A stretch of 64,000 bases of DNA from Heterodera schachtii (Eukaryota > Nematoda > Chromadorea > Rhabditida > Heteroderidae): contig SIJG01000027.1 in the NCBI GenBank assembly GCA_023374025.1, forward strand, positions 628,162 to 692,161, in the 5' to 3' direction. The position numbers and the translations under genes were made by a program. The notes beneath the pieces were generated by a model that worked only from the letters and a program-made list of their open reading frames with translations, searched no databases and was not told the DNA's origin. Of the stretch, positions 41,051-64,000 are shown piece after piece (positions within the stretch are counted from its first letter, which is position 1; each line of letters opens with the position of its first letter).

Positions 41051-42431
41051 CACAAATGATCGATGACTGCCAAGGTCGATGAAAATTGAGGCGATCATGC
41101 TGAGATGCGGTTGTGCCGGATTGAAAAAGGTTGTTGTTGTTGTCATGAGTAATGCGCGAGTGTTTTGGCATGATTGTTGCCGCTGCGATTTGGTTCGGCG
41201 CATTGTTGTTGCGGCAGAGTGCTGTTGGATGGAGTTGTCCGCATTTGAAACATTTTTCCAATTGTTCCGAATTGGATCGCGATCAACTCAAGCAACGAAA
41301 GCTTACGCCACCACATGAGGTGAAGCAGCCCGATATTTTGCTTGGCATCGATGTCTGGCACGAATTACAAGTCCAATTCATCGAACGATTGCCAAGCGTT
41401 CAAAAATGGGAAAAATTCTCAGCGGAACTGGACGAATGGAAATGAGACAAGCATCAAACGTCACTTTCGTATTTGCAGTCGAAAGCAATCAAATGGCACG
41501 AACATCTACAAATCAATCAATCGAATCCGAAGACAATGTCTTCACCTCTGAGAATGATCTGAAACGAGATGATCAACTCAACAGCCTTTTTGGTTTCCAT
41601 TTGATTGGAATGGACGACTCATCAACGCCGATCGATCGAGATGAAGTAATGGTTAACTTTAAAACCAGGAATTGAAGTGCATTGAGATTGAAGATGAGTC
41701 TTTCTCCATTGGTGCGCCTTGCTTAGCGAGTGTAATCCGGTGGCGGATTTGAATGATTCGTAGAATTCCGGCCATTGTCGTTTGTTGCCGCTTAATTTCT
41801 CGAGTTGCACGGGTTGAATTTGGAAAAATGATGATGGGCGCGATGGCGGAATCGTTCTGCCTTGAGTTGCGGGTACTGCTTGTGCTTGTGCAGCTTGAGC
41901 TGCTCGTTCTTCCATGTCGCATTTGTTGCGGAAGAGTTTTGCATGCAATTTGGTTTCCACATGTTTGTGGTGTTGTCGGGCAATTGGCAATTCGCTGGTT
42001 TGACTTTCTTTGAAGAGTCCTTCGATTGGACCAGGAAAGTTGACACTGAGTTCGTCGTTGGTTATCCACGTGTTGCTGGTTTGTGTCATTTCTGTTTTTG
42101 CCATGGGGCAAATTTGGTGAAGTGCCATTTGTCGGCACATTGTTTTGGACACGGGCAGATATGTTTTGTTGACGTCCACGAACTTATCTCCTATCAGGTT
42201 GGTGTATTTGGACGTCAACGCTGGCGGTGGGCGGCAACACGATGGACACACTTCTTCAGAGAGAGTGCAATTTAAATGTTGGGAGCTACTCTGGATGGAC
42301 ATTCGAGGTACGTCTTCCACTTCGGGAACAATGCCGCGTGAGTCCCGTTGGAAATGAAAGTTCCCCCTTGGATTAGGAGCGGGGGAAGCCCAATAGGGGA
42401 AAAAGTTATTGACAGATTTGCGGTAGACCAA
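40950..42431 (-). pseudogene. scrambled BEL/Pao gag-protease fragments
   Basis: Minus strand 41690-42431 includes PVQLEKLSGNKRQWPEFYES, matching the BEL/Pao gag domain (DUF1759). Minus strand 41070-41261 has a zinc knuckle CFKCGQLHPTALC and then SIFIDLGSHRSFVSNY, a DUF1758-type protease site with DLG where DTG or DSG is usual. Between them, about 41280-41675 reads on the PLUS strand: KQPDILLGIDVWHEL and LNSLFGFHLIGMDD, normally found after the protease and before the reverse transcriptase. The middle piece is therefore inverted. No LTRs were seen. Confidence 0.6.
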
Positions 42432-43026
42432 TGATGAGTGACTCCTGGGTAAAGATTTATCTCTTCAGTGTAAGATGCCCCTTGATGAAAAGCAACCTTT
42501 TCGGATAAAACCAGATGCTTCCCGACAAAAATTGAAGCCCGTGAAGTCTTCCCTTAATTCGGGAACCGATTGGTGGGGCTCTAAATCTGAGCAGAATGAA
42601 CCCAAGCAAGACCCAGCTGATGGACAACGGAGAATAGAGGCTATTTGAATATTGTAGGAACGTGTCCAGCCCCGACTTTAATTCCCAATGGCTGGTTGCA
42701 AAGGAAAAGCGGGCAAAGACAGCGTGAAAAAAAAATTGATTTTTAAAAATAAATTACAAAATATTGCCGCTCTTCCACAGCACACAAATACCTACATACG
42801 CCATTAAAATAAAAATGATGCAAACAAATGAATGGGGGAGAGAAGGGAGAAGGGAAGGTAGCACACAAGTGCCACAAAAAAGCGTCTTTTCCCCTCTGTC
42901 TCTGCCCCCTCTCCCCCTTTTCTATTGTCTCTTCGGCAGAGTGAAAGAAGGGGATTTATTGATGAGGAGCAGGCAGAGGAAAAAGCGTAAGTTGTATTCG
43001 AGTTAATCGGTTTTCGGTTTTCAATT
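42432..43026. other. gene-free stretch
   Basis: 42440-42720 may be 5' leader of the scrambled BEL/Pao relic, but I cannot show it. 42830-42960 is purine/pyrimidine-biased (GGGAGAGAAGGGAGAAG and CCTCTCCCCC). No coding exon trusted. Confidence 0.4.
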
Positions 43027-45254: not shown

Positions 45255-45511
45255 CTAAACAAATATGGGATTTGTCAAACCGCGACTCGGCACTGGGCAG
45301 CGATGTGAGTAATGTCTTTGTGTGCCGCGTTTTTTTTTGGAAATTTTGTGTTTCCGGCGATGTCGGTAGCCTCCATAATGGAAATTTTATTTTTTTTGAA
45401 AATTTAGACGCAATTTATCTAAAATTTCGACAAAAAACAAACAAACAAAAATGAACCCCATAATCTTGGTAACAAAAAATCGGTTTTTTCAGAATCCAAC
45501 CAGCAGAAGTG

Positions 45512-46569
45512 GCACCAGTCGTTGTCGGCATCCCCAAATAGGAAAATTCTATAAGAAAAAATTTTGGCAAAATTTCAGCGATTCCATCAAGTTCAACCCG
45601 TACAGCAACAGCAACTGCCAGTCTGATGGACTCGGGCCGTCCGGTGGCAGCGGCCTCAACGCGTGCGCTCCAACCGCATTCTGTTTGTTTTGAGGTAATC
45701 CATTTTTCATGGAAAATTAAAAAAAAATTCTTTTTTTTTGAAAATTAATCTTTTTTCCTGGCGAAGGTTCATTTTCCAACCTCATTCTGTTCGGTTTGAG
45801 GTAACCCATTCTCCATGGAAAAATTGCAAAAAACATTTTTTGAAAATTGATGTTTTATTTCTGCTGGTTGAAGGTTCATCTCCCAACCGAAATGAAAAAT
45901 TAAGCACAATTTCCTTGCAATTTGTGTAAAATTATTATTTTTTTGTTGTCGAAAAACTGCTAAAACATAAACTAACTTTGAAGAATTATGTACTAGAAAA
46001 ATAAAATTTTTGGACAGTAAAAAAAGTTTTCAAAAAAAAAATTTAAGTAATTTTTTTTATAAGAAATTGTAAGAAAAAAATTCTTTGAAAAAATTTAAGC
46101 GATTTTTGAAAAATTTTTGAAGAATCTTCGTAATTTTCCATAAAAATTTTCTAAACTTTTTCCTTTGGAAAACTTGTAAGTTAGTAATTTTTCGAAATTT
46201 AGGCGTTTTTTGGCATGACGACGTTTAGGCGACAACGTTTTGAAGCGCACAAATTGCGGCATGGCCTGTTTCGTGCGCCGCCGTCCCGCTGATGTTGTGG
46301 CGGCCGTTTTGCGGTATATCCCCGCTAACCGCCCAAATCTATTGCTCCATGTAATTTTAAAAAGTGCCATTTCAATCAATTTGCTTCACTTTTAAGGGTT
46401 GATAGACATTTTGAACACATTCATTTTTTGTTTTCATTTGATTTATGTCTACAGGCGGGGCCGAAACATTTTTAAGATTTTTTTGTTTTTAACATTCTGA
46501 CAGGGTCTGTTTTGATGAGGCCCGCCCTGTCAAAATGCAATTGCTTTTCAGTTTAAAAGCAATGATTGG
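45512..46569. repeat. 1.06-kb tandem unit 1
   Basis: Each unit carries a plus-strand exon-like segment after ATTTCAG (AIPSSSTRTATATASLMDSG, then SVCFE|GTAATC) and a GC-rich block near its end. On the plus strand that block reads LKRTNCGMACFVRRRPADVV with splice-like edges; on the minus strand it is also open. Which strand, if any, is coding is unclear. Confidence 0.7.
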
Positions 46570-47628
46570 GCACCAGTCGTTGTCGGCATCCCCAAATAGG
46601 AAAATTCTATAAGAAAAAATTTGGCAAAATTTCAGCGATTCCATCAAGTTCAACCCGTACAGCAACAGTAACTGCCAGTCTGATGGACTCGGGCCGTCCG
46701 GTGGCAGCGGCCTCAACGCGTGCGCTCCAACCGCATTCTGTTTGTTTTGAGGTAATCCATTTTTCATGGAAAATTTAAAAAAAAAATTTTTTTTTTTGAA
46801 AATTAATCTTTTTTCCTGGCGAAGGTTCATTTTCCAACCTCATTCTGTTCGGTTTGAGGTAACCCATTCTCCATGGAAAAATTGCAAAAAACATTTTTTG
46901 AAAATTGATGTTTTATTTCTGCTGGTTGAAGGTTCATCTCCCAACCGAAATGAAAAATTAACGCAATTTCCTTGGAATTTGTGTAAAATTATTATTTTTT
47001 TGTTGTCGAAAAACTGCTAAAACATAAACTAACATTGAAGAATTATGTAGCTAGAAAAATAAAATTTTTGGACAGTAAAAAAAGTTTTCAAAAAAAAATT
47101 TAAGTAATTTTTTTTATAAGAAATTGTAAGAAAAAAATTCTTTGAAAAAATTTAAGCGATTTTTGAAAAATTTTTGAAGAATCTTCGTAATTTTCCATAA
47201 AAATTTTCTAAACTTTTTCCTTTGGAAAACTTGTAAGTTAGTAATTTTTCGAAATTTAGGCGTTTTTTGGCATGACGACGTTTAGGCGACAACGTTTTGA
47301 AGCGCACAAATTGCGGCATGGCCTGTTTCGTGCGCCGCCGTCCCGCTGATGTTGTGGCGGCCGTTTTGCGGTATATCCCCGCTAACCGCCCAAATCTATT
47401 GCTCCATGTAATTTTAAAAAGTGCCATTTCAATCAATTTGCTTCACTTTTAAGGGTTGATAGACATTTTGAACACATTCATTTTTTTGTTTTCATTTGAT
47501 TTATGTCTACAGGCGGGGCCGAAACATTTTTTAAGATTTTTTTGTTTTTAACATTCTGACAGGGTCTGTTCTGATGAGGCCCGCCCTGTCAAAATGCAAT
47601 TGCTTTTCAGTTTAAAAGCAATGATTGG
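46570..47628. repeat. 1.06-kb tandem unit 2
   Basis: Same content as unit 1. It starts directly at GCACCAGTCGTTGTCGG without the preceding CAG acceptor found in unit 1. Confidence 0.8.
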
Positions 47629-48689
47629 GCACCAGTCGTTGTCGGCATCCCCAAATAGGAAAATTCTATAAGAAAAAATTTTGGCAAAATTTCAGCGATT
47701 CCATCAAGTTCAACCCGTACAGCAACAGCTAACTGCCAGTCTGATGGACTCGGGCCGTCCGGTGGCAGCGGCCTCAACGCGTGCGCTCCAACCGCATTCT
47801 GTTTGTTTTGAGGTAATCCATTTTTCATGGAAAATTAAAAAAAAATTCTTTTTTTTTGAAAATTAATCTTTTTTCCTGGCGAAGGTTCATTTTCCAACCT
47901 CATTCTGTTCGGTTTGAGGTAACCCATTCTCCATGGAAAAATAGCAAAAAACATTTTTTGAAAATTGATGTTTTATTTCTGCTGGTTGAAGGTTCATCTC
48001 CCAACCGAAATGAAAAATTAACAGCAATTTCCTTGGAATTTGTGTAAAATTATTATTTTTTTGTTGTCGAAAAACTGCTAAAACATAAACTAACATTGAA
48101 GAATTATGTAGCTAGAAAAATAAAATTTTTGGACAGTAAAAAAAAGTTTTCAAAAAAAATTTAAGTAATTTTTTTTATAAGAAATTGTAAGAAAAAAATT
48201 CTTTGAAAAAATTTAAGCGATTTTTGAAAAATTTTTGAAGAATCTTCGTAACTTTCCATAAAAATTTTCTAAACTTTTTCCTTTGGAAAACTTGTAAGTT
48301 AGTAATTTTTCGAAATTTAGGCGTTTTTTGGCATGACGACGTTTAGGCGACAACGTTTTGAAGCGCACAAATTGCGGCATGGCCTGCTTCGTGCGCCGCC
48401 GTCCCGCTGATGTTGTGGCGGCCGTTTTGCGGTATATCCCCGCTAACCGCCCAAATCTATTGCTCCATGTAATTTTAAAAAGTGCCATATCAATCATTTT
48501 GCTTCACTATTAAGGGTTGATAGACATTTTGAGCACATTCATTTTTTGTTTTCATTTGATTTGTGTCTGCAGGCAGGGCCGAAACATTTTTTATGATTTT
48601 TTTTTTTTTAACATTCTGACAGGGTCTGTACTGATGAGGCCCCGCCCTGTCAAAATGCAATTGCTTTTCAGTTTAAAAGCAATGATTGG
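47629..48689. repeat. 1.06-kb tandem unit 3
   Basis: Same content; it has a one-base insertion in the CAGCAACAGC run relative to unit 1, which shifts the exon-like frame. Confidence 0.8.
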
Positions 48690-49745
48690 GCACCAGTCGT
48701 TGTCGGCATCCCCAAATAGGAAAATTCTATAAGAAAAAATTTTGGCAAAATTTCAGCGATTCCATCAAGTTCAACCCGTACAGCAACAGCAACTGCCAGT
48801 CTGATGGACTCGGGCCGTCCGGTGGCAGCGGCCTCAACGCGTGCGCTCCAACCGCATTCTGTTTGTTTTGAGGTAATCCATTTTTCATGGAAAATTAAAA
48901 AAAAATTCTTTTTTTTTGAAAATTAATCTTTTTTCCTGGCGAAGGTTCATTTTCCAACCTCATTCTGTTCGGTTTGAGGTAACCCATTCTCCATGGAAAA
49001 ATAGCAAAAAACATTTTTTGAAAATTGATGTTTTATTTCTGCTGGTTGAAGGTTCATCTCCCAACCGAAATGAAAAATTAACACAATTTCCTTGGAATTT
49101 GTGTAAAATTATTATTTTTTTGTTGTCGAAAAACTGCTAAAACATAAACTAACTTTGAAGAATTATGTAGCTAGAAAAATAAAATTTTTGGACAGTAAAA
49201 AAAGTTTTCAAAAAAAAATTTAAGTAATTTTTTTTTATAAGAAATTGTAAGAAAAAAATTCTTTGAAAAAATTTAAGCGATTTTTGAAAAATTTTTGAAG
49301 AATCTTCGTAACTTTCCATAAAAATTTTCTAAACTTTTTCCTTTGGAAAACTTGTAAGTTAGTAATTTTTCGAAATTTAGGCGTTTTTTGGCATGACGAC
49401 GTTTAGGCGACAACGTTTTGAAGCGCACAAATTGCGGCATGGCCTGCTTCGTGCGCCGCCGTCCCGCTGATGTTGTGGCGGCCGTTTTGCGGTATATCCC
49501 CGCTAACCGCCCAAATCTAGTGCTCCATGTAATTTTAAAAAATGCCATTTCAATCAAAATTTGCTTCACTTTTAAGGGTTGATAGACATTTTGAACACAT
49601 TCATTTTTTGTTTTCATTTGATTTATGTCTACAGGCGGGGCCGAAACATTTTTTAAGATTTTTTTGTTTTTAACATTCTGACAGGGTCTGTTCTGATGAG
49701 GCCCGCCCTGTCAAAATGCAATTGCTTTTCAGTTTAAAAGCAATG
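48690..49745. repeat. 1.06-kb tandem unit 4
   Basis: Same content; it passes at its right end into the sequence that begins copy B (GATTGCTCTATTTG..), also found at 43235 and 53826. Confidence 0.8.
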
Positions 49746-50888
49746 ATTGCTCTATTTGTAAAAAAAATGCAGGAATTCCTTTAAAAATACATATTTTTGG
49801 AATTTACTTAAGGAAAGATTTTCCGAATCAAGCTGTGTACATATGCAAATAATAGAAAACAAAAATTGTCATCAATTTTTTAAAATTATCCGATTAGCCC
49901 GCCGGTGTGCCGCTCAGCGACGCGGAGCAGCACAACTCGTCCATCTCCGGGTAAATTTTCGGATTAGGCTAGGTAACTGCAAAAAAAAATTACTAGACTT
50001 TTTAAAATTTTGGCGCCTAAGAAAAAAGAGGAAATTTTAGACAAACTTTGACCATTTTATGAGGAAAAATATGCAGAAAGTGGAACCCGGCGATATCGTT
50101 AGGCCACGCCCTGGAAAATTAAAAAAAGTTTCTCCAATTTCAGAAAATTTTAAAAGTAATCCATCAACCGAATTTATTTCAGTCAAAAGATTGTTTTTTG
50201 GGCTTTTTAAAGTGTCTGTTTTTTAAACTCTCTAAAATAAACCCAAAAAATGGGCCAATCATTCGTCGTCACTTTTTTGGGGAAAAAATCCCACTAAATT
50301 CTGAAAAATTTCTTGGTGGTGGGGTGGGGCTAAAAACTAACCGTCCAGCATGATTCGGTTGTCCTCCCTGCACAACAGTCCGACCACAGGTACTGCTGCT
50401 GCAACTGTTGTTGTTTTTGATGGATTCGATTGCCTAAAAATGAAATGTTTTTTTTTGTAAGAAATTTTGCAATGGTAAGGGAAATTTTCGGGTTAGGCTA
50501 GGTAACTGCAAAAAAAAATTACTAGACGTTTTGTGGTGCAACGCATTTCCCTACCTCACCCAAAAAAAAAAATTTCTTCGACACAAATTCGATTACGGTT
50601 TTCATTACATTTTTATTTTCAAAAAAATTTCTTAATAGTAAAAGGATAGGTATGTTTTTTTCTAAATTAATTTTTCAGCAAATGTTTTTCAAAAAAAATG
50701 CTTAAAATTTTGCCGCGAAATTTAAAAAACGGAAAATCAATCGAAATTTCCTATGCTCCTACGTCTTTACCCATTCGCTTCTGCTGTTGCTGCTCATCCG
50801 CTGGGCTTGGCTTTTTTTTGGGAAAAAGAAATCCCACTAAATTTTAAAAAATTTCCTGGTGGTGATGGAAGGGGGTTGTGGCTGGAAG

Positions 50889-52513: not shown

Positions 52514-52770
52514 CTAAACAAATATGGGATTTGTCAAACCGCGACTCGGCACTGGGCAGCGATGTGAGTAATGTCTTTGTGTGCCGCGTTTTTTTTTGGA
52601 AATTTTGTGTTTCCGGCGATGTCGGTAGCCTCCATAATGGAAATTTTATTTTTTTTGAAAATTTAGACGCAATTTATCTAAAATTTCGACAAAAAAGAAA
52701 CAAACAAAAATAAACCCGATAATCTTGGTAACAAAAAATCGTTTTTTTCAGAATCCAACTAGCAGAAGTG

Positions 52771-53829
52771 GCACCAGTCGTTGTCGGCATCCCCAAATAG
52801 GAAAATTCTATAAGAAAAAATTTTGGCAAAATTTCAGCGATTCCATCAAGTTCAACCCGTACAGCAACAGCAACTGCCAGTCTGATGGACTCGGGCCGTC
52901 CGGTGGCAGCGGCCTCAACGCGTGCGCTCCAACCGCATTCTGTTTGTTTTGAGGTAATCCATTTTTCATGGAAAATTAAAAAAAAATTCTTTTTTTTTGA
53001 AAATTAATCTTTTTTCCTGGCGAAGGTTCATTTTCCAACCTCATTCTGTTCGGTTTGAGGTAACCCATTCTCCATGGAAAAATTGCAAAAAACATTTTTT
53101 GAAAATTGATGTTTTATTTCTGCTGGTTGAAGGTTCATCTCCCAACCGAAATGAAAAATTAACACAATTTCCTTGGAATTTGTGTAAAATTATTATTTTT
53201 TTGTTGTCGAAAAACTGCTAAAACATAAACTAACATTGAAGAATTATGTAGCTAGAAAAATAAAATTTTTGGACAGTAAAAAAAAGTTTTCAAAAAAAAA
53301 TTTAAGTAATTTTTTTTATAAGAAATTGTAAGAAAAAAATTCTTTGAAAAAATTTAAGCGATTTTTGAAAAATTTTTGAAGAATCTTCGTAACTTTCCAT
53401 AAAAATTTTCTAAACTTTTTCCTTTGGAAAACTTGTAAGTTAGTAATTTTTCGAAATTTAGGCGTTTTTTGGCATGACGACGTTTAGGCGACAACGTTTT
53501 GAAGCGCACAAATTGCGGCATGGCCTGCTTCGTGCGCCGCCGTCCCGCTGATGTTGTGGCGGCCGTTTTGCGGTATATCCCCGCTAACCGCCCAAATCTA
53601 GTGCTCCATGTAATTTTAAAAAATGACATTTCAATCAAAATTTGCTTCACTTTTAAGGGTTGATAGACATTTTGAACACATTCATTTTTTGTTTTCATTT
53701 GATTTATGTCTACAGGCGGGGCCGAAACATTTTTTAAGATTTTTTTGTTTTTAACATTCTGACAGGGTCTGTTCTGATGAGGCCCGCCCTGTCAAAATGC
53801 AATTGCTTTTCAGTTTAAAAGCAATGATT
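52771..53829. repeat. 1.06-kb unit in copy B
   Basis: Single unit, preceded by the TTTTTTCAGAATCCAACTAGC acceptor-like sequence as in unit 1 of copy A. Confidence 0.8.
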
Positions 53830-54127
53830 GCTCTATTTGTAAAAAAAATGAAGAATTCCTTTAAAAATACATATTTTTGGAATTTATTTAAGGAAAGATT
53901 TTCCGAATCAAGCTGTGTACATATGCAAATAATAGAAAACAAAAATTGTCATCAATTTTTTAAAATTAATCCGATTAGCCCGCCGGTGTGCCGCTCAGCG
54001 ACGCGGAGCAGCACAACTCGTCCATCTCCGGGTAAATTTTCGGATTAGGCTAGGTAACTGCAAAAAAAATTACTAGACTTTTTAAAATTTTGGCGCCTAA
54101 GAAAAAAGAGGAAATTTTAGACAAACT

Positions 54128-54565
54128 TGTCGCCAAAGAAAGCGACAAAAAATCGATCGAAGATCCATTTTGTGATGACTAAGCCCCGCCCCCTCTAGTC
54201 GATATAAAAGGGGCTCATTTTTCCCATTCGGGAGCATTCTATTAATTTTCTCTGTATTAAATTTAGTCTGTTCACTCTCTGTCTTTTTGTAATAAAGTCT
54301 TTTGAAAGGCTTTGTGCAATTTTCGCGGTATTTTTAAGGAGAAAAATTCTCCTTAATCAAAAGGTTATTTGTGAAGAGAAGAAATTCTTCTCTCTCACAA
54401 ATAAAAGCAAAACCAAGACTCACCCTCTCTTAGGGTGAATCGAGGAAAAGGAGAAGAATCAATTTCTCTTCCTTTTCCATTTGGTTAAAGACTCCCCCCT
54501 TCTGCCGGGAGAGTCAACCTTCCCCTTCTGCAGGGAAGTGCATTTTTTGTGGCTTTTTGCCCACA
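54128..54565 (+). repeat. 5' LTR (right end approximate)
   Basis: Starts TGTCGCC. Contains GATATAAAAGGGG (TATA) at about 54200 and TTTGTAATAAAGTC (polyadenylation signal) at about 54288. It is taken to end at ..GCCCACA at 54565, just before the TGG of the presumed primer-binding site. Several hairpins are present, for example TTGTCGC/GCGACAA at the tip and CACCCT/AGGGTG at 54421-54437. The end cannot be confirmed without the 3' LTR. Confidence 0.7.
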
Positions 54566-54569
54566 AAAT

Positions 54570-54587
54570 TGGAGCCCCGTAGGGGTC
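54570..54587 (+). other. presumed tRNA primer-binding site
   Basis: TGGAGCCCCGTAGGGGTC begins four bases after the presumed LTR end and starts with TGG, complementary to a tRNA CCA tail. The tRNA identity was not determined. Confidence 0.55.
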
Positions 54588-54704
54588 GGCTTCCAGTCGT
54601 AAGCCTACCCTCCAACCAAACGCCAATCCAAAGCGCAGCCGTAGCGCTTGGATCAAACGCACAACCCAAAGGGGTTTATTGCGTTTTCATCAAGCGTAAG
54701 AGCA

Positions 54705-57700
54705 ATGAGTGAGCTCTTGCGCATCTCCATTGCACCAATGGTGGTGCGTCTCAAGATGTACATTGAGACAGCCCAAGAAAACTTGGGCAAAGAGCTGGCG
54801 GACCAGAGTGTCCGTGCAGATCTTCTTGCAGAGAGACAAAATCTCTGCAAAGCAATTTCTCTTTTGGAGAAATACAATGGAAAATGGGAAGCCATTTTCC
54901 TGAGAGTGAAGGGACAAGCTCTTCAAGATGAAGAGCAAAACTACAGAGACTTCAAACCGGAAGGCAAGGCCTTCATGCATTGGGTCGACCAAGCCCGAGG
55001 GCTTGTCGACACCATTGAAGGGGCTTTAGGCCTCTCGGAGCTGGGGGATGCAATTCCCCAGCCAAATCAGCCAGCACAAGCTGTGCAACAGGCACCAGTG
55101 GTGCATCAGCGTCATGATGTGACGCTTCCGCCAATAACATTGCCCAAATTCTCGGGGGAACCCCGAGAATGGCCTTTGTTTTGGAAGCTCTTTGAGACTT
55201 CCGTTGAAAGTCTTCAGATTGAAGACTTCAAAAAGCACATTTATTTGCTGGGATGCCTCCCAGAGAAGTCAGTTGCTAGGAGAGCAATTGACTTATACCC
55301 GCCGTCAGATGAAAACTACCCAAGGGTAGTTGAGATTCTGAAAAAGCGGTTTGGGGATGAAAAAACAATGGTGGAGTCCCTCCAAGCGGAGTTACTCCAC
55401 CTTGCCAAACCAGCTGAATCCGTTCAGTCTCTGAGACAATTCTCAGAGTCCATTGAACGGATTTGCCATCAGTTGTTGGACTATGGAGAGAATGAACAAA
55501 ATAAGTTCATGGCCTCCACAATTAAGTCCAAACTGCCCTATCACCTTCTCACCCAAGTGGTGGAGAAGGAAATGAGGGCAGGAGGAGCCTTCAACTGCAC
55601 AGAGCTCCGAAGAGCTATCACTTCAATCGTTGAAGTGAAAGAGGAAGTACAGAGATGTACTCAGGTTTTCCGTGGAGAGGAAAAACCTCGCAATTTTCCC
55701 CCTCATTCAAATGGGGGAAGAGCCAACCAAGGGAGAGGAACACCGTTCCGTTTCTCCCAGCCGTTCAGACAAGAACGGCAGTGGAGGCCAATGGAACGAA
55801 ACGAACCGGTGAGGAGGATGTCTCCTCAACCGAATCGTTCCTTCTCGGCCATCAACAAACCACAAACCCCTATCTCAGATAGGGGGTCAAATCGCTTATG
55901 TTCCCTTTGTGAAACAAAGGGGCATGCACCGAGCAGGTGCACAAAATACACCACTCCGGGGGCGCGAAGAAAGCGCCTTACGGATCAAGACAGGTGTATT
56001 AATTGCCTCATGATGGGGCATAATTCACAGAATTGCACCTCACCCCGCAGGTGCAGTCATTGTGGTGAAAGACACCACTTTATGGTGTGTTTTGGAGAAA
56101 AGTCTCGAGAGGGAACCTCTCGGGGCCAACCAAATAATCAGATGAAAAGAGAGACGAGAAAATCCTCTCAAAGTCATCTGACGATGAGCGAGCACGCTCA
56201 TAAAAGCGTGCCCGGTTCGGAATGCTCACCCATCACTACTAATGTGATGACAAGCGTGATGGCGAAAAAGCCTCACGCATTTCTAATGACCAGAAAGATT
56301 CTGGTCAGATCCAAAAATAATCGAAGAGTTTGGATGGAAGTTCCATTCCTCTTCGATCCAGGAAGTCAAACTTCCTACGCTTCCGACCCTCTCATTGAGA
56401 GGCTCAAGCCACCGAAAGTGACTTCCGAAGAAATGGAAGTCTATGGCTTCGGGGGAGAGAGAAATGGGCCAATGAGGTTCCATTCTCCCGTGTATTCCAT
56501 CCAAATCAGAAGAACGGATGGAAAGTGGGAAGAAATCCTCCTAAATAGGACGGAGAGAATTTCCACGCCATTCAAAATGGCAGAATGGAATTCTGAGGAA
56601 TTCCCACTCAAAGGAATGGACATGGCCGACGCTATGAGTTTTTCTCGGGAAGAGCCCGAAATACTCATAGGTGCCAGACATTTCTGGCAATTCTTCCAAG
56701 GGAAGGAAGAAGTTTCTCCCGGGTTGTTTGTAATTCAAACAACCTTGGGCCCTTTGGTTAACGGAGAGTCCGACTTTGGGCCGGAACTTCCGAACCCAGG
56801 ACTATCAATGATGGCCATTGATGAGTCCAATCAAGGGCAAATGCCGACCATTAAAGAAATTGAATATTTCTTTAATTTGGAGTCATTGGGGATCAAAGAC
56901 GATCCAAATGAAAATGACGACCAAACAGCAATGAGCCTGTTTAACAAGTCCATCCGTCGAGAAAAAGACGGAAGGTACTCTGTTAAGTGGCCATGGAAGG
57001 AGGAGGTGCCTGACCTCCCTTCCAATTACCGCATGGCCTTTTCAAGGCTAATGTCTACTTTTGGTAAGCTTCGTAATTCTCCAGACTTAATGGAGCAATA
57101 CGATGCTACCATTAGAGACCAATTGGAAAAAGGGATAATCGAAGAGGCCAGGAAAGCCCCTGGCACTCTTGAGCATTATATCCCTCATCAGGGAGTTCTT
57201 GCCAAAGGCAAGAAATTGCGCGTCGTTTACGACGCCAGTGCTCACACCAGAGGAACAAACAGTCTCAATGCCTGTTTGTATAGAGGCCCGGTAATACTGC
57301 CGGATCTCATCGGAATGCTTATGCGATTCCGATGTCCAAGATTCCCTCTCCTCTCCGACATCCAAGCAGCATTTTTGCAAATTGCTTTGGAACCGGAGGA
57401 CAGGGAAGTCACCAAATTCCTCTGGGTGAAGGATGTCAGTAAACCACTGGCACCAACAAATCTGATCACTTACCGATTTTGCCGTGTGGCATTCGGAGTG
57501 ATCAGTTCTCCCTTCATTTTGGCTGCGACTTTGCAGCACCATTTGAAGGGGTACCATTCTCCAGTGGCCAACGAATTGGCCCAATCATTGTATGTGGATA
57601 ACACTCTTCTTGAGTGTGAATCCGCAGAAGAGGCTTTGCATAAATATGCAGAGTCTAAAGCCATCCTTAAAGAAGGACTCTTCAATTTGAGGGAATTTGT

Positions 57701-59957
57701 TACAAATTCCCCAGAGGTAATGAAGGCGATTCCTGAGGAGGATCGCCTGAACAAGCCCAAGGTAAAAGTCCTAGGGCTCATTTGGGACACAGACAAAGAC
57801 GAAATTGTCTTTGAGTTCCCAACTCATGGCTTAGAAAAGCTGGCAACACGCCGTCTTGTTCTAAGCTTCCTCGCCTCATTATTTGACCCTCTTGGTCTAA
57901 TGGGGCCGTGCATTCAGCCCTTAAAGCTTTTCTTCCAAACTCTTTGGGAAGAAAAGAAGGGCTGGGATGATGTTCTTTCTGAGAAAGAACAAACTCAATG
58001 GGCCTCCTTCCAAGAAAATTGGAAGGATCAGACCCTAAAAATCCCACGCAGAGCAATGCTACAAGGGAATCCTTCCCTTGAATTGCATGCTTTTGTGGAT
58101 GCTTCCATCCACACATTTGCAGCTGCCATTTATATAAGAGCAGTAGAAGGTAGCCAAATTTCAGTTTGGCTTATCTTCTCCAAAAATAGGCTCAAGCCTA
58201 AAAATGCCTCAAAGGCATTAACAATCCCTAGAATGGAACTCATGGCCATTCTAATAGGGATTCGCGGTCTGAAATTTGTCGCCGATCAAATTCGGCGACC
58301 CATTTCTCAACTCCATCTTTGGGGCGATTCACAAATCGCTCTAAGTTGGGTTGCTTCAAAGGAAGCACAGCCAAAATTCATTGAGAGACGAGTTAAGGAA
58401 ATTCGTACTCTCAATGAATGCGCCTTTCACTTTGTCCGAACAGCCGAAAATCCGGCGGACATTGCAACGAGAGGCGCAAAACCAGGAGAACTTAAGGATA
58501 AGTCTCTCTGGTGGAATGGTCCTTCCTGGCTTAAGGAAGACCATGACCAATGGCCTAAAGAAATGGAATTTAAAATAAAAGATCCTCCAGAAAATCTGGA
58601 GGAAGGGTCTCTGGATAACGAAGAGAAAGTTTTCTTCGTTAATACCAGAACAGAGGGACTGATTGAGAGTCCTCTGATTGACCCCAAAAGATTCAGCTCA
58701 TGGACAAAGATTGTCCAAGTGACTCTCTTTGTGTTAAGATTTCTCCGTCTGAAACTAATTCAGAGGGGAAATCCTCATCAACTTTTCGAGAGTCATCGAA
58801 AAGAAATCGCCAAAGTGTCCGAAAAAGGACCATTTTCAGCAGAAGATGTTCTCCTAGCAGAGAACCTTCTGATCCGCATGGATCAGATGAAAAAGGCTGA
58901 AGATTTCCTCAGCTATCCTTCTCTTAAGGATAGTGAGGGGATTTTGAGGCTTAAAACCAGGTTGGGACGGTGTGACCAACCTTTTGGTTTTAGCCATCCA
59001 ATCATTCTCGGAGGACAATCCTCCATCCGAGACTTGATCATCTTAAAATGCCACCAGAAAAGGCATCATTTTGGGGTGGAAGGCACCCTCACTGAGTTCT
59101 TACTCGGGTATTGGACACCTCGAGCAAGAACTAAGGTCAAAAAAGCACTGAAGGGATGCCTTCGGTGCAAAAGGATGCAGGCATACCAGTTTGCATTGCC
59201 AAAAATGCCTCCTTTACCTGACGAGCGAGTATGCCGTCAGGCTCCTTTCAAAGCAATCGGCATTGACTTTCTCGGTCCAACCGAAACACGGTTGGCCGGG
59301 GAGAAAGTCAAGGCATGGATACTCCTTATGACTTGCCTCGTAACACGAGCGGTTCATTTGGAGGCCATGCTTGACACAACTGCCGAGTCATTCCTCAATG
59401 TTCTCCGACGTTTCATAAGTCGGAGAGGGAAGCCCGATTTAATTTGGAGTGACAATGCCACTTCATTTAAATTGGCTCAAAAAACCATTGAGCATTTGAC
59501 CACTCCAGGAGTGGATCAAAACACGCAGGAATTTTTCGCACTTAATAAAATTAAGTGGCGATTCATTCCACAAATCAGCCCTTGGGCAGGTGGCGTTTAT
59601 GAACGCCTTGTCCAATTGTGCAAAAATTGCTTCAAAAGGACTTTGGGGAGAAAAGTCCTCAGTTATGATCAACTCATAACTTTTGTGGCTGAAGTTGAAG
59701 CCACATTAAACCATCGCCCTATTACTTCTGTGTCAGAAGGGATGGATGAGTTCCTGCCCCTTCGTCCAGTGGACTTCCTTCAACCGGAAGTCCAAATTCA
59801 CTGGGACACGAATGGTGAAGAATTCGATCCATCGGATCGAAATCTTTCATCCCACCAAAAATTAGTTGCCCTTTTTCAGGCAACTAAAGAATCCCATGAA
59901 TTTTTCTGGGAAATGTGGCAAAAAGAATACCTTCCTCCTTCTGCGGGAGAGAGGTAA
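54705..59957 (+). CDS. gag-pol: BEL/Pao gag-pol polyprotein
   Basis: First ATG at 54705 gives 1750 residues; the frame is open slightly further upstream without an ATG. Domains in order: gag DUF1759 (about 142-265, TLPPITLPKFSGEPREWPLF), three zinc knuckles (from Cys399 and Cys431, and CSHCGERHHFMVC), and a DUF1758 aspartic protease with FDPGSQTSY (Asp551; DPG instead of DTG/DSG). Next is reverse transcriptase with LLSDIQAAF (Asp885) and YVDN at 963-966, a form common in nematode Pao elements. RNase H has FVDAS (Asp1132), MELMA and GDSQIALSW. Integrase has a Cys/His region (CHQKRHH..CLRC) and the DDE residues Asp1521, Asp1583 and Glu1633. All catalytic regions are open. The integrase C-terminal domain (DUF5641-like) is not in this frame but continues in the next ORF after a one-base shift at about 59940. 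Confidence 0.9.
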   Translation: MSELLRISIAPMVVRLKMYIETAQENLGKELADQSVRADLLAERQNLCKAISLLEKYNGKWEAIFLRVKGQALQDEEQNYRDFKPEGKAFMHWVDQARGLVDTIEGALGLSELGDAIPQPNQPAQAVQQAPVVHQRHDVTLPPITLPKFSGEPREWPLFWKLFETSVESLQIEDFKKHIYLLGCLPEKSVARRAIDLYPPSDENYPRVVEILKKRFGDEKTMVESLQAELLHLAKPAESVQSLRQFSESIERICHQLLDYGENEQNKFMASTIKSKLPYHLLTQVVEKEMRAGGAFNCTELRRAITSIVEVKEEVQRCTQVFRGEEKPRNFPPHSNGGRANQGRGTPFRFSQPFRQERQWRPMERNEPVRRMSPQPNRSFSAINKPQTPISDRGSNRLCSLCETKGHAPSRCTKYTTPGARRKRLTDQDRCINCLMMGHNSQNCTSPRRCSHCGERHHFMVCFGEKSREGTSRGQPNNQMKRETRKSSQSHLTMSEHAHKSVPGSECSPITTNVMTSVMAKKPHAFLMTRKILVRSKNNRRVWMEVPFLFDPGSQTSYASDPLIERLKPPKVTSEEMEVYGFGGERNGPMRFHSPVYSIQIRRTDGKWEEILLNRTERISTPFKMAEWNSEEFPLKGMDMADAMSFSREEPEILIGARHFWQFFQGKEEVSPGLFVIQTTLGPLVNGESDFGPELPNPGLSMMAIDESNQGQMPTIKEIEYFFNLESLGIKDDPNENDDQTAMSLFNKSIRREKDGRYSVKWPWKEEVPDLPSNYRMAFSRLMSTFGKLRNSPDLMEQYDATIRDQLEKGIIEEARKAPGTLEHYIPHQGVLAKGKKLRVVYDASAHTRGTNSLNACLYRGPVILPDLIGMLMRFRCPRFPLLSDIQAAFLQIALEPEDREVTKFLWVKDVSKPLAPTNLITYRFCRVAFGVISSPFILAATLQHHLKGYHSPVANELAQSLYVDNTLLECESAEEALHKYAESKAILKEGLFNLREFVTNSPEVMKAIPEEDRLNKPKVKVLGLIWDTDKDEIVFEFPTHGLEKLATRRLVLSFLASLFDPLGLMGPCIQPLKLFFQTLWEEKKGWDDVLSEKEQTQWASFQENWKDQTLKIPRRAMLQGNPSLELHAFVDASIHTFAAAIYIRAVEGSQISVWLIFSKNRLKPKNASKALTIPRMELMAILIGIRGLKFVADQIRRPISQLHLWGDSQIALSWVASKEAQPKFIERRVKEIRTLNECAFHFVRTAENPADIATRGAKPGELKDKSLWWNGPSWLKEDHDQWPKEMEFKIKDPPENLEEGSLDNEEKVFFVNTRTEGLIESPLIDPKRFSSWTKIVQVTLFVLRFLRLKLIQRGNPHQLFESHRKEIAKVSEKGPFSAEDVLLAENLLIRMDQMKKAEDFLSYPSLKDSEGILRLKTRLGRCDQPFGFSHPIILGGQSSIRDLIILKCHQKRHHFGVEGTLTEFLLGYWTPRARTKVKKALKGCLRCKRMQAYQFALPKMPPLPDERVCRQAPFKAIGIDFLGPTETRLAGEKVKAWILLMTCLVTRAVHLEAMLDTTAESFLNVLRRFISRRGKPDLIWSDNATSFKLAQKTIEHLTTPGVDQNTQEFFALNKIKWRFIPQISPWAGGVYERLVQLCKNCFKRTLGRKVLSYDQLITFVAEVEATLNHRPITSVSEGMDEFLPLRPVDFLQPEVQIHWDTNGEEFDPSDRNLSSHQKLVALFQATKESHEFFWEMWQKEYLPPSAGER

Positions 59958-61713
59958 ATGGGACCACAAGAGTCCCCGTCTTCAGGACAAAACAGAACCA
60001 AAGGAGGGAATGATCGTCCTCATTCATGAGGAGTTCACTCCCCGAAACCAATGGTCTTTGGGAAAGATCATTGAGCTTAATGGCCGACCAGGGGCCATTA
60101 GGAGCGTTCAGTTGGAACTCCCAATTCATGGGATAAAATCAAAGAGGTATGGAACCATGCCTCGGAAAATCATTATCACCCGTCCGGTGAATAAGATTTT
60201 CCCATTGGAAGTAGGATTTGACAATCCTACAGAAAATGAAGAAAAATTTGAAGAGAGTTCAAATGGAACTCCTCAAATACCAAATGAGAAAGAAATTTCT
60301 CATTTGGAAGCTCCAATGGATGAAAAGGAGACTGAAACTCTTCAATTGGTTGATCAACCAATTGACCAAAACCGGCATGGCATGATCACTCGCAGCAAAG
60401 CAAAGATGGGGACAGTTTTGAACTGTCTTTCCATCCTTTTTGCTATGTTTGCGTTGGTTGGAGCTTATCCAACCAATCATTGCAATGAATGCAAACTTCT
60501 TTGCTTTAACAAAGGCGTTAAAGCAAAGATTCCAAAAGAAATCAATAAAGTTGAGCTCTGCTGTGCAGAGAACTGTTACATTCATGAGAATGTAAAGAAG
60601 CTCACTTACGAGCTGCCCAAGGAGATCCTCCTAAATGACTTCAAATGCGAAGGTCATTTCTGGATGGATTCGAAACACATGTTCAAAAAAGACATTTTAT
60701 GTCCAGCAGTTGATGAGTGTGAACTCATCGAATGCTATTTTTGCATTGAACAGTTAGCGAATCCAACCTGTTATCCATTGATTTCATCAATGTTAGCAGG
60801 GGGACTTTGCTTATCATTCATAAGCATAAGCTTTGTGGCTTTTTCCATATTAAAAGTCCTGTTTTCAGGACTTTATATGGTCATTTGGCTGATAATTCAA
60901 TTTATCAGGCCAATAATTTATTTAGCTGGCCCAAATCGGCCTCCGAAAGATAGGAGGCCAAGGGCAACAGCTTCTCAAAATTGGACATCACGCCGTGTTT
61001 ACAGAACAATGGCGTTTGTTGTCCTTATGGCTAACTCTCTCCAGGATTTGACTGGAGCAGAGACCATCGCAGTCATGGCCAAATCGGAAAAATGCATTAA
61101 AAATGCGACAAGCATGAGATGCATTGTCGAAAACTCAGCAACGCTTACGTTGCTGCCAGTTGGCCAAACAAACACTCTTCTTCTGAAAACAGAGGAAGGT
61201 GTTCTCCTTGGCTCAATTAACGTTGTGCTGAAGGCTTTAGCTTTGGAATGCCAAAGCTTCACTAAAGCCTGGCAACGTTCATACGCAATTAATGTGTTGG
61301 CCGGTAAAAGGTGCCCTAAGATGGGCTCCTGTGAAGGAAAGTATTGTAGCGAAGTTCGCCACAATACTTCAATTCCTGAGCTAAAGGATGCCAACGATTT
61401 TCCAGGCAATTCATTTTGCCTGGACAGCACAGCCTTTTGGGGCAACAAATGCCTCTTAGGCGGCAGTGCATGCCTTTTTTATCGTTGGTATGCTCAGGAA
61501 AAGTCCAAGACAGTCTATGAAATCATGGGCTGCAATTCCTGGGAATTTATTGTTTATGCAATAATTCGCCTTGGAAACCTTGGGCGAAAAGCCCAAGTCC
61601 ACTCAGGTGTTCCTCTATCCAGGAAGAACCCTGAAATGGAACAACATCAGTATTACTCCGATCGGAGTAACTTTTCCGCCCGCTCCCGTCTTAAACTCAG
61701 ATTTTGTTTTTGA
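59866..61713 (+). CDS. integrase C-terminal domain fused to first part of envelope glycoprotein
   Basis: This frame overlaps the end of gag-pol by 92 bases and is shifted by one. It first continues the integrase C-terminal domain (EGMIVLIHEEFTPRNQWSLG, KRYGTMPRKII). After an acidic linker and a basic MITRSKAK, a signal-like hydrophobic segment occurs at about 60412-60470 and a short Cys-rich ectodomain (CNECKLLCF.., about 60480-60780). A long membrane region follows at 60780-60940, then a second hydrophobic start at about 61003-61060. From 61060 a Cys-rich ectodomain resembles the N-terminal part of phlebovirus Gc-type class II fusion proteins as carried by nematode BEL/Pao elements. The frame stops at 61713 while homology passes into another frame between about 61566 and 61603. 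As read the envelope is interrupted, so it is either a defective copy or frameshifted in expression. Confidence 0.7.
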   Translation: MPFFRQLKNPMNFSGKCGKKNTFLLLRERGKWDHKSPRLQDKTEPKEGMIVLIHEEFTPRNQWSLGKIIELNGRPGAIRSVQLELPIHGIKSKRYGTMPRKIIITRPVNKIFPLEVGFDNPTENEEKFEESSNGTPQIPNEKEISHLEAPMDEKETETLQLVDQPIDQNRHGMITRSKAKMGTVLNCLSILFAMFALVGAYPTNHCNECKLLCFNKGVKAKIPKEINKVELCCAENCYIHENVKKLTYELPKEILLNDFKCEGHFWMDSKHMFKKDILCPAVDECELIECYFCIEQLANPTCYPLISSMLAGGLCLSFISISFVAFSILKVLFSGLYMVIWLIIQFIRPIIYLAGPNRPPKDRRPRATASQNWTSRRVYRTMAFVVLMANSLQDLTGAETIAVMAKSEKCIKNATSMRCIVENSATLTLLPVGQTNTLLLKTEEGVLLGSINVVLKALALECQSFTKAWQRSYAINVLAGKRCPKMGSCEGKYCSEVRHNTSIPELKDANDFPGNSFCLDSTAFWGNKCLLGGSACLFYRWYAQEKSKTVYEIMGCNSWEFIVYAIIRLGNLGRKAQVHSGVPLSRKNPEMEQHQYYSDRSNFSARSRLKLRFCF

Positions 61714-64000
61714 CGGGAGCAATATGGCTCTGACCCGAGAGCCATTGGCAATTGACTTCAACTGTAAAAATCGGCAAGAAGCAATTGATTTCAATTGCAG
61801 TCTTGGAGTTCAGGCATGCACTGATTGCATACCTGACCATTCATCAGGTTTAGTGAACTGCAATTGCCGTTCACATAACCTTGAAAAGTTAATGGAAAGT
61901 CCAGAGAGGAGACTTCCATTAAACATCAAAAATTACCAACTCAGAAATACTGGGAGAAAGGTAATTGCCTTGACAGGATTCAGTCCTGTCCAATTAAACC
62001 TTCAAATCGAAGGTCTTCAAATGGCTTTGGAACTTCACCAAAGCCTTTGCACCATTTTGCCGTTGAACATATCTGGCTGTTACAGATGTTCAACGGGAGC
62101 ACAATTCCGTTATGTGTGCTCGACTAATTTTGGCAATTCTCTTGCCGAAATTAAATGCGATGATGGTACACATTTTTCAACAAAATGTGATTCCAATGCA
62201 TCCATTTACCAAACAATTTTGGCTTTTGACAAAGCCAGAGTTGACACAAAATGCCAAACAAAATGTTTGGCTGGAAACACTTCTTTTGTTCTCAGCGGGA
62301 CATTACACTATGTCCCGCCTGAACAAATAGAAAACTACAGTCCAAATCACTCCGAAAGAGTGATAAACAGTCAATCCAGTTGGCCTAACTGGAATTTTGA
62401 TTGGAAGGCGACCCTTTGGTCTTTGATTGGCCTCCAATCATCACTCATCTTCATAATGATTATTTGTGTAGGCATTGTTTGCCTAACAATTTTCATTAAA
62501 CTTTCTCCTTTCTATAGACTTTGGAAATTTATTTCCTGGTCTATAACGAGAAAGGGGTACGGTAATGTGCCTACAGTATTGGCACTACTGTACTTGGCCG
62601 GGGGAGGATCCTACGGATGTGATGATGATTCACCTCCAAGCCCCTCCTCCAAAAATTTTTCGATAAATAGGGAGGAATTGCCCTCCCATTTATCATTCAC
62701 CATGCCATTCGGCAGATCACCTTTGAGCGATTTAACTAATCGCTCGAGTGAAACAAGACCTGGGAGACACCCAGAGTCAACTGGCCAAGAAAATTTGGAT
62801 CCAAGAGATCCAAGAGAGGAGGAGAACCCTTCTCTTACAGAGGAAGAAATTCCTCTTGAACACCCAAGGAATTGGGAGAATATGTCTGAACTCAGTTCAG
62901 ACTCACCGACTTGGGCTGGAAGAGAGGACAGCCCAATGTCAGATCTCTCCGACAGAACGTGGAACCCACCACGTTCAATCTGGCCGAGGGACCGGAGAGA
63001 ACCATTGAGTTCTTGGTTTCCTCGAATAATGGGAAACCATTGGTTCGAAAGAGAAAGGCGATCAGCGGAAGCACTTCTCAGAGATTTTCTGAGAAGTGGG
63101 GCCTTTCTCCGAACAAATCACCTCGCCACAAATCGTGAAGTTCACTTTGATGGACTTTCACGCAGTGGGGCTGAGCGAACACCGATTTTCCCCGGAATGT
63201 CTGTTCAAAGACATTTTGAAAGACGGGGGATTACCATTAATCCCCGTGTACCACTTGTCCAGGAAAGTGGGGGATTTTCGCCCAACAGAGGGGACATCCA
63301 CATGGACTATTTCCCGACAGAGGTAGTAGACCTCTGTTACTTCGGAGAGGAGGAAAATATCCTCCGCGCCATGGGAGTCCCAACAAACGGCTCCCCTTCA
63401 CGGGGAGGTCAATCTCCCCCTCAAAGAGAAATGAGTCCGAGAGAGAATTCTCGGACCATTTTTGAGCCTCGAAGAGGTCAGGAGGGAGGCCCTTCCTCTT
63501 CCTTTGTTCAGGAAAGGGGAAGGGGAAACCATCGGCAGGAAAGGCCGACAAATACGATCTCGGCACACAGTCCGAGTCGTATTCCGACAATCTTTGTCAT
63601 TTTTTTAATGATGATTTTTCATCAAAATGTAATTGCGAAGCATTACATCTCGGAATGCTCAACCTTTCCGCAATTTGCGGCAAAGCATCCTTTAATAGAG
63701 ATGCAAGTGCACTCTATGAATCATCAAAAGCATTGGGAAGCGCTGAATAAGCCCCTCCCTCGAGAATGGGAGGGAGGAAATCAGTCAGTACTTAAGGCAC
63801 TGACTGGAGGAAAGGAGGATCAATTGAAATTAATTGAAATGTCCTCCTCCTCCTCTTCCCCTTTTGCTCCATCAATGGAAGATGGAGAGATTTCTGAGTC
63901 TCCCTCAGAAAACGAAATTCCCCTCTGCCAAAGAGGGGTGAAAAATGCCGACACCGAGCTGGAAGATGCCACCAAACCGGTGGGTAAGAGGGTCAAAAGG
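61565..64000 (+). CDS. rest of Gc-like envelope plus long novel C-terminal extension, open at window end
   Basis: From the stop at 61562-61564 this frame has no stop to the window end (about 812 codons). It first completes the Gc-like ectodomain, with many Cys and NxS/T sites, up to a membrane segment at about 62410-62500 (LIFIMIICVGIVCLTIFIKL). A second hydrophobic stretch follows at about 62570-62600. From 62620 the protein becomes Arg/Ser/Pro/Glu-rich (MPFGRSPLSDLTNRSS, WERGRG-type runs) with no family I recognise. At about 63580-63640 there is a further hydrophobic segment (IPTIFVIFLMMIFHQNVIA), signal-like, followed by a new Ser/Glu-rich stretch ending in a dibasic KRVKR at the window edge. 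The start is unclear because entry depends on the shift from the preceding frame. Hairpin density is as high as in gag-pol. Confidence 0.65.

What the first reader, a model, noticed from the sequence alone, without database searches (positions are those of the whole stretch)
54128..64000. A retroelement whose entire sequence is packed with short perfect hairpins
Reading through the BEL/Pao element, perfect inverted repeats of 6-12 bp with loops of 1-15 bases appear every few tens of bases, in the LTR, gag, pol, env and the 3' extension. Examples (left arm/right arm): 54127-54133/54142-54148; 55429-55436/55441-55448, itself inside an outer CCGTTCA/TGAACGG pair; 56192-56198/56205-56211; 58324-58329/58334-58339; 58376-58387/58408-58419 (12 bp); 58868-58875/58880-58887; 58913-58920/58926-58933; 59218-59224/59235-59241; 59277-59283/59289-59295; 59402-59409/59419-59426; 59661-59668/59674-59681; 59770-59778/59786-59794; 59823-59830/59834-59841; 59862-59870/59879-59887; 60078-60085/60093-60100; 60343-60364 (perfect 22-bp palindrome); 62725-62732/62738-62745; 63782-63789/63799-63806. 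The protein motifs remain intact, so synonymous choice seems shaped to keep stems. I see nothing like this in the host genes. Possible causes: selection for a globally structured RNA genome, templated (snap-back) mutation during reverse transcription, or DNA-level hairpins. I do not know of a described retroelement with this property, and I could not search.
Basis: seen in the sequence. Interest (0 to 1): 0.93.

Follow-up and report, generated by a model that had tools for sequence, protein, structure and literature searches.

The report
Nematode retroelement paved with RNA hairpins
One branch of virus-like jumping genes in a cyst nematode carries short perfect hairpins along nearly its whole length, and evolution tends to keep them paired, which points to an RNA genome selected to fold up tightly, with predicted folding above the published values it was compared with.

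Summary
Of 18 listed hairpins, 17 are exact and one is off by one base. The element (LTR to window end) has 65 perfect stems of 8 bp or more with loops of 2-15, against 3 mirror repeats; window 1-38 kb has 58 against 57. Codon permutation gives a mean of 1.9 where gag-pol has 31. Predicted folding exceeds dinucleotide shuffles by 45% in 350-nt fragments; a coronavirus paper gives 23.4% as its highest vertebrate RNA virus (PMC7642675, passages). The trait marks one supported clade of BEL/Pao elements here (12 of 25 places on the tree, support 100/99); the others are at background or weakly raised. Within the 75% family, fourfold sites in stems change 2-3 times less often than outside; the effect weakens with distance. 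Paired double changes exceed slid controls, and folding favours the sense strand. Individual hairpins turn over between families while density stays. Best reading: selection for a globally folded RNA genome, GORS-like, in an LTR retroelement. Templated snap-back mutation alone is disfavoured. Function (RNAi shielding, packaging or other) is not shown.

The parts
54123..54127 (.). left copy of the 5-bp target site duplication (AAACT)
   Evidence: also follows the 3' LTR in L049; a single copy is in the empty-site-like sequence at 50030-50060 (read by eye)
54128..54565 (+). 5' LTR (TG...CA)
   Evidence: blastn 54127-54568 against L049:958-1399, 442 bp, 4 mismatches; the 3' LTR begins about 600 bp beyond the window end; boundaries set by eye from TG, CA and the target duplication
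54648..59957 (+). gag-pol open reading frame; 69 perfect stems of 7 bp or more with loop 2-15
   Evidence: Pfam DUF1759, Peptidase_A17, Integrase_H2C2; RVT_1 just below its cut-off; stems
59866..61713 (+). env, first part: DUF5641 stretch, then phlebovirus-like G1 (below cut-off) and most of the G2 fusion domain
   Evidence: env stems
61571..64000 (+). env, second part in another frame (rest of G2 and its C-terminal domain), then a 3' extension running past the window end
   Evidence: stem density
55420..55460 (+). nested hairpin pair in gag
58376..58419 (+). 12-bp perfect stem
60343..60364 (+). 22-bp perfect palindrome
54127..64000 (+). whole hairpin-dense stretch: 203/127/65 perfect stems of at least 6/7/8 bp with loop 2-15
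   Evidence: controls

Best explanation
This is an env-bearing BEL/Pao LTR retroelement of a cyst nematode. The RNA genome of its clade is under continuing selection to be folded into a string of short local hairpins: 6-9 bp of perfect pairing, loops mostly 3-9 nt, in every coding part, in the LTR and in the 3' extension. What is selected looks like the amount of folding, not particular hairpins: relatives keep the density but mostly in other places. Shown here: the excess, its clade, the synonymous constraint, the compensation and the strand bias. Inferred: that the folded molecule is the sense RNA in the cell or particle, and that the benefit is reduced access for host RNA recognition (small-RNA silencing being my leading candidate in a nematode) or compaction for packaging.
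For: Excess over mirror repeats, distant pairs and codon permutation. MFED +45.1% sense and +37.0% antisense, 14 fragments of 350 nt, sense range 26-62; L010 40.5/31.1 and L014 26.6/19.0 (8 fragments each, some with flanking DNA); controls L018 -0.6/0.7, L022 0.4/1.8, window 1-46 kb 6.3/5.1. Windows of 150 nt folding better than the mean of their shuffles: 52/52, 41/41, 31/31, 42/42 in W, L010, L013, L014, against 17/42 and 20/41 in L018, L022. Sense stronger than antisense in 4 of 4 (p 0.002-0.017), not in those 2 controls; also 5 of 5. Fourfold-site change in stems against outside: L010-L013 12/117 v 163/559 (p 8e-6), L010-L011 15/100 v 204/522 (p 2e-6), L010-W 26/78 v 238/410 (p 7e-5), W-L010 49/118 v 208/356 (p 0.002); five same-family mirror-repeat controls and six rows from three unstructured pairs show no significant reduction. 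Double changes that stay Watson-Crick: 6 of 9 (L010-L013), 8 of 11 (L010-L011), 24 of 39 (W-L010) in place, against 0-2, 0-2 and 7-13 with partners slid; also 29 v 8-18 for W-L014 and 14 v 3-9 for L014-W. Within copies about 98% alike, one pair occurs as C-G in 2, T-A in 3 and T.G in 1 of 6 copies, and another as T-A in 5 and C-G in 1. Loops are A-rich on the sense strand in 4 of 4 elements (0.37 v 0.30 in W). One clade, support 100/99.
Against: G.U tolerance, expected for RNA, is weak: among stem pairs changed on one side G.U is no commoner than A.C (38 v 40 W-L010; 11 v 15 L010-L013; 12 v 16 L010-L011; 13 v 20 L012-L013; 4 v 2 L010-L012). Stems interrupted once do favour G.U over A.C, 30 v 14 where 3.0 and 3.1 are expected (three of the five elements are close relatives), but a first small count was mixed. 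Most of the energy excess is also on the antisense strand, and some weakly folded controls (L019 17.5/11.5, L028 12.4/4.7) lean to the sense strand too. The constraint fades with distance (W-L014 fourfold 24/47 v 136/216, p 0.14; twofold 23/45 v 79/195, the wrong way) and is not significant in the closest pairs (L010-L012 p 0.13; L013-L011 p 0.092). In the close pairs L001-L002, L001-L005 and L010-L012 paired double changes do not exceed the slid controls (3 v 0-3; 0 v 0; 0 v 0). No expression or probing data were seen.
Confidence: 0.82

Rival explanations
1. Templated (snap-back or template-switch) mutation during reverse transcription keeps writing reverse-complement copies beside their source, without selection for structure.
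For: Stems are strikingly perfect and the excess exists on both strands; template switching is proposed to create and maintain hairpins in RNA genes (PMC8794818, passages read). Loop lengths of 3-9 suit a snap-back.
Against: Stem sites evolve more slowly than outside, where this model predicts equal or faster change. Of 7 polarised stem gains with two or more derived changes, 6 had changes on both arms and 1 on one arm; 14 further gains were single changes, which do not discriminate (five comparisons that share sequences). Among the variable columns of six copies about 98% alike I saw by eye some clusters but no multi-base arm replacement. The strand bias is unexplained.
Confidence: 0.08
2. 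Templated mutation makes the stems and selection for folding keeps them: a mixed origin. This overlaps with the best explanation, so the odds do not add up to one.
For: Perfect pairing with little G.U; maintenance by selection is supported.
Against: Gains seen are mostly single or two-arm changes.
Confidence: 0.2
3. The hairpins act in DNA, as single-stranded cDNA or cruciforms.
For: Watson-Crick pairing preferred; G.U and A.C about equal among new changes.
Against: Folding excess, interrupted stems and A-rich loops point to the sense strand.
Confidence: 0.06
4. Chance, composition or codon bias.
For: None found.
Against: Mirror, distance, codon-permutation and dinucleotide controls, and sister families mostly near background.
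Confidence: 0.01

Closest known systems
[quoted passage not shown]
   Same: Raised MFED across the genome, many consecutive local stem-loops, positions poorly conserved between relatives; that paper also reports evidence that base pairing restricts fixation of mutations.
   Different: Here in an LTR retroelement, at 45% against about 15% in SARS-CoV-2 and 23.4% for the highest vertebrate RNA virus in that paper (similar but not identical shuffling, fewer fragments here); perfect stems with little G.U. In that paper low synonymous variability did not closely follow high MFED along the genome.
Atlas virus and other nematode belpaoviruses with phlebovirus-like Env (PMC9094657: passages read)
   Same: BEL/Pao pol, Gn/Gc-like env, nematode host.
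   Different: A term search of that text found 'RNA structure' 0 times; its DNA was not tested here.
Ty1 genomic RNA (PMC9503155: passages read)
   Same: LTR retrotransposon RNA in which the pairs shared between compartments are mostly short-range, with discrete well-structured regions.
   Different: Well-structured regions cover about 19% of the nuclear RNA there, by probing; here hairpins pave the element, by prediction. The measures are not the same.
Template-switch hairpins in RNA genes (PMC8794818: passages read)
   Same: Perfect stems and compensatory changes.
   Different: Slower change in stems and two-arm gains do not fit it as sole cause.

Membership tests
BEL/Pao (Belpaoviridae) retroelement | Pao-type polyprotein with RT and integrase | tested here: met
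   Peptidase_A17 161 bits, DUF1759 and Integrase_H2C2 over cut-off; RVT_1 27.6 bits, just under its 29.6 cut-off
BEL/Pao (Belpaoviridae) retroelement | paired LTRs and a short target duplication | tested here: met
   4 mismatches in 442 bp; 5-bp AAACT
Nematode belpaoviruses with phlebovirus-like env | Gn/Gc-like env downstream of pol | tested here: met
   Phlebovirus_G2 5.6e-45 and 7.5e-16, Phlebo_G2_C 1.4e-12; G1 under its cut-off
GORS | MFED well above zero along the genome | tested here: met
   14 of 14 fragments of 350 nt at 26-62%
GORS | pairings poorly conserved in position although the degree is kept | tested here: met
   13 of 65 mapped W stems fully paired in L010 and 1 of 39 in L014, out of 69 (4 and 30 not mappable)
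GORS | described in positive-strand RNA viruses copied by an RdRp | tested here: not met
   reverse-transcribing LTR element; so it is said to work like GORS and is not filed among those viruses
GORS | folding seen by chemical probing in cells | not testable with these tools
   no RNA data
Template-switch mutation | new stems arise by replacement of one arm in one event | tested here: inconclusive
   1 of 7 multi-change gains on one arm only; small sample, overlapping comparisons

The most novel reading that the evidence does not exclude
A retroelement lineage has turned its whole RNA genome into an armour of about 150 short perfect hairpins, individually expendable but collectively selected, with stems falling off sharply above 9 bp, so that it stays hidden from small-RNA silencing without making duplexes long enough for Dicer: genome-wide folding as a transposon's defence against RNAi.
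Probability: 0.3. Interest if true: 0.92.

Novelty: new variant of a known kind. Interest (0 to 1): 0.8.

Why it matters
Genome-wide RNA folding has been described in RNA viruses and tied to persistence, but what it is for is unsettled (PMC7642675, passages). Here is a reverse-transcribing element with a stronger predicted signal than the values in that paper, next to sister families in the same genome with almost none. That gives a natural matched comparison in one host: does folding change small-RNA targeting, packaging or copy number? It also suggests that selection on synonymous sites can reshape a whole retroelement.

Tried and rejected
Chance and composition were rejected by mirror repeats, distant pairs, codon permutation and dinucleotide shuffles. 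A general property of the host genome was rejected: window 1-38 kb, 13 other BEL loci and 20 integrase-family loci lie mostly near background, though L019, L020, L027, L028 and some integrase loci (L040-L044) show a weaker excess. Antisense coding as a cause was not supported: the one antisense frame of 150 aa or more listed in 50-64 kb has 165 aa. Regular spacing was not found (coefficient of variation of gaps 0.97-1.15). Codon phase of the stems showed no consistent class bias. GNRA or UNCG loops are not prominent: 4 GNRA and 0 UNCG among 40 four-base loops. Searches for relatives with DNA outside this genome found none: two scans of viral contigs and one of prokaryote genome contigs; no collection of other nematode genomes was at hand and metagenome contigs were not scanned. 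A protein search gave a 99% match named Heterodera trifolii and a 71% match over 36% of the query in Globodera rostochiensis, without DNA. A Copia search (PF07727) rang nowhere, controls included, and says nothing. Papers: the listed titles and abstract starts showed no report of genome-wide RNA folding in a BEL/Pao element or at this level in another retrotransposon. The lists were capped (for instance 25 of 23,965, 20 of 155) and the library holds open-licence papers only, so this is no proof of absence.

Weak points in my own handling: L008 and L009 are the same place (contig C101), so 13 tree rows are 12 places and the 75% family has five places. L015 was turned the wrong way by a longest-frame rule, so its row there is not used and it dropped out of the tree; its density does not depend on orientation. 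L007 was too short for the tree. The 75% family members are close relatives, and the pairwise tests share sequences, so the rows are not independent.
Full report
What is there. The window's right end holds an LTR retroelement of BEL/Pao type: a 5-bp target duplication at 54123-54127, 5' LTR 54128-54565, gag-pol frame 54648-59957, a phlebovirus-like env over two frames from 59866, and a 3' extension running past the window end. The 3' LTR begins about 600 bp beyond the window in L049, with 4 mismatches in 442 bp. The genome has 178.5 Mb in 356 contigs and at least 134 matches to a 193-aa pol piece (residues 1025-1217, the Peptidase_A17 stretch). The best protein match is 99% to a protein named Heterodera trifolii. 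A published H. schachtii assembly has about 179 Mb in 395 scaffolds (PMC9582021, passages). I infer a Heterodera cyst nematode; the species is not settled.

The observation. 17 of 18 listed hairpins are exact and one is off by one base. From 54127 to 64000 there are 203 perfect stems of 6 bp or more with loops of 2-15, 127 of 7 or more, 65 of 8 or more; no stretch longer than 231 nt is free of such a hairpin. Mirror repeats in the same sequence number 40, 14 and 3, and the excess falls to the level of distant pairs as the loop passes about 30 nt. Window 1-38 kb has 58 inverted and 57 mirror repeats at 8 bp or more. Codon-permuted pieces of gag-pol gave a mean of 1.9 and a maximum of 6 stems of 8 bp or more in 30 permutations, against 31 seen. 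Two env pieces of W and relatives L010, L013 and L014 behave alike (7.5-14.3 fold at 8 bp or more), while L017, L018 and L022 are at 0-1.5 fold and L019 and L021 at 2.8 and 2.1 fold. The gag-pol, env, 3' extension and LTR all carry stems (13.0, 12.7, 14.2 and 9.0 per kb at 7 bp or more); the 79-nt leader has none.

Folding. In 350-nt fragments the predicted energy exceeds dinucleotide shuffles by 45.1% on the sense strand and 37.0% on the antisense (14 fragments); L010 40.5 and 31.1 (8 fragments, sense range -6 to 72, some with flanking DNA); L014 26.6 and 19.0 (8); controls L018, L022 and window 1-46 kb lie at -0.6 to 6.3. Six shuffles per fragment were used, so single values are rough. For scale, a paper on coronaviruses gives HCV 7.5-10.7%, SARS-CoV-2 about 15% and 23.4% as the highest among vertebrate RNA viruses analysed, with a similar method (PMC7642675, passages). 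In 150-nt windows each window tested of W, L010, L013 and L014 folds better than the mean of its shuffles (52/52, 41/41, 31/31, 42/42), and the sense strand is favoured in all four (p 0.002-0.017) but not in the controls L018 and L022. An earlier run gave sense over antisense in 5 of 5 structured elements, but also in some weakly folded controls such as L019 and L028.

Where it occurs. Stems of 8 bp or more per kb: 5.3-6.4 in 3.6-kb loci of the element and its five 98% copies, 4.1-6.7 in the 75% family (six loci, five places, since L008 lies within L009), 4.3 in L014, 1.8 in L015, 3.7 in the fragment L007; 0-1.6 in 13 other BEL loci and 0-1.2 in 20 integrase-family loci. Many of these loci include flanking DNA. 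On a tree of the RT and Peptidase_A17 region, the structured loci form one group (13 of 26 rows, 12 of 25 places, support 100/99; the root is drawn at the midpoint) with 8-17 fold excess; the other 13 rows have 0.3-4.7 fold, with L019, L020 and L027 the highest.

How it evolves. Fourfold-degenerate sites inside stems change less often than outside: 12/117 against 163/559 for L010-L013, 15/100 against 204/522 for L010-L011, 26/78 against 238/410 for L010-W, 49/118 against 208/356 for W-L010. That is 2-3 fold within the 75% family and 1.4-1.8 fold against W. Mirror repeats in the same pairs (5 rows) and stems in three unstructured pairs (6 rows) show no significant reduction; one of those six rows leans the other way (p 0.032). 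The constraint is not significant for the closest pairs (L010-L012, L013-L011) nor for W-L014, where twofold sites even lean the other way. Double changes that stay paired exceed controls with slid partners (6 of 9, 8 of 11, 24 of 39; also in the pairs with L014), but not in L001-L002, L001-L005 or L010-L012. Among six copies about 98% alike, one stem pair exists as C-G, T-A and the T.G intermediate, and another as T-A and C-G. Yet positions turn over: 13 of 65 mapped stems of W are fully paired in L010, 1 of 39 in L014. Polarised gains with several changes had them on both arms in 6 of 7 cases.

Interpretation. Constraint, compensation, strand bias and A-rich loops together favour selection on the folded sense RNA. 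Low G.U content and equal G.U and A.C among new changes are the main results against it; interrupted stems do favour G.U, 30 to 14. Template switching may help to make stems but does not by itself explain slower change in them. Stem counts fall sharply above 9 bp in W, L010 and L014 (38 stems of 9 bp, 8 of 10 bp pooled). That could mark a ceiling set by duplex-sensing enzymes, or simply enough stability; this is inference.

Limits. No RNA data; one genome; host identity inferred; host coding exons not tested apart; energy models are predictions; relatives are not independent. The literature search covers an open-licence library only, through capped lists.

Noticed in passing
window 45511-49988 and 52770-54128: A roughly 1,060-bp tandem repeat and a repeat of host DNA at 4,081-bp spacing; the element sits in one copy and another keeps an empty-site-like sequence at 50030-50060.
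   Followed up: partly
L049:2597-5474 (just downstream of the element): A second, partial copy of the element (99.6% identical to window 59097-61976) follows the element, next to the same repeated host DNA.
   Followed up: no
window 61571-61713: The env G2 domain is split between two frames in this copy; in some relatives (L010, L012) one long frame is open.
   Followed up: no
L019, L020, L027: Distant BEL families with a weaker hairpin excess (about 4-fold; L019 MFED 17.5% sense in 150-nt windows), so the trait may be graded.
   Followed up: partly
L014: A 64% relative of higher G+C keeps the hairpin density with almost entirely different hairpins.
   Followed up: partly
window 41622-42464, minus strand: Open frame that by eye resembles a Pao-type gag piece; not searched.
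   Followed up: no
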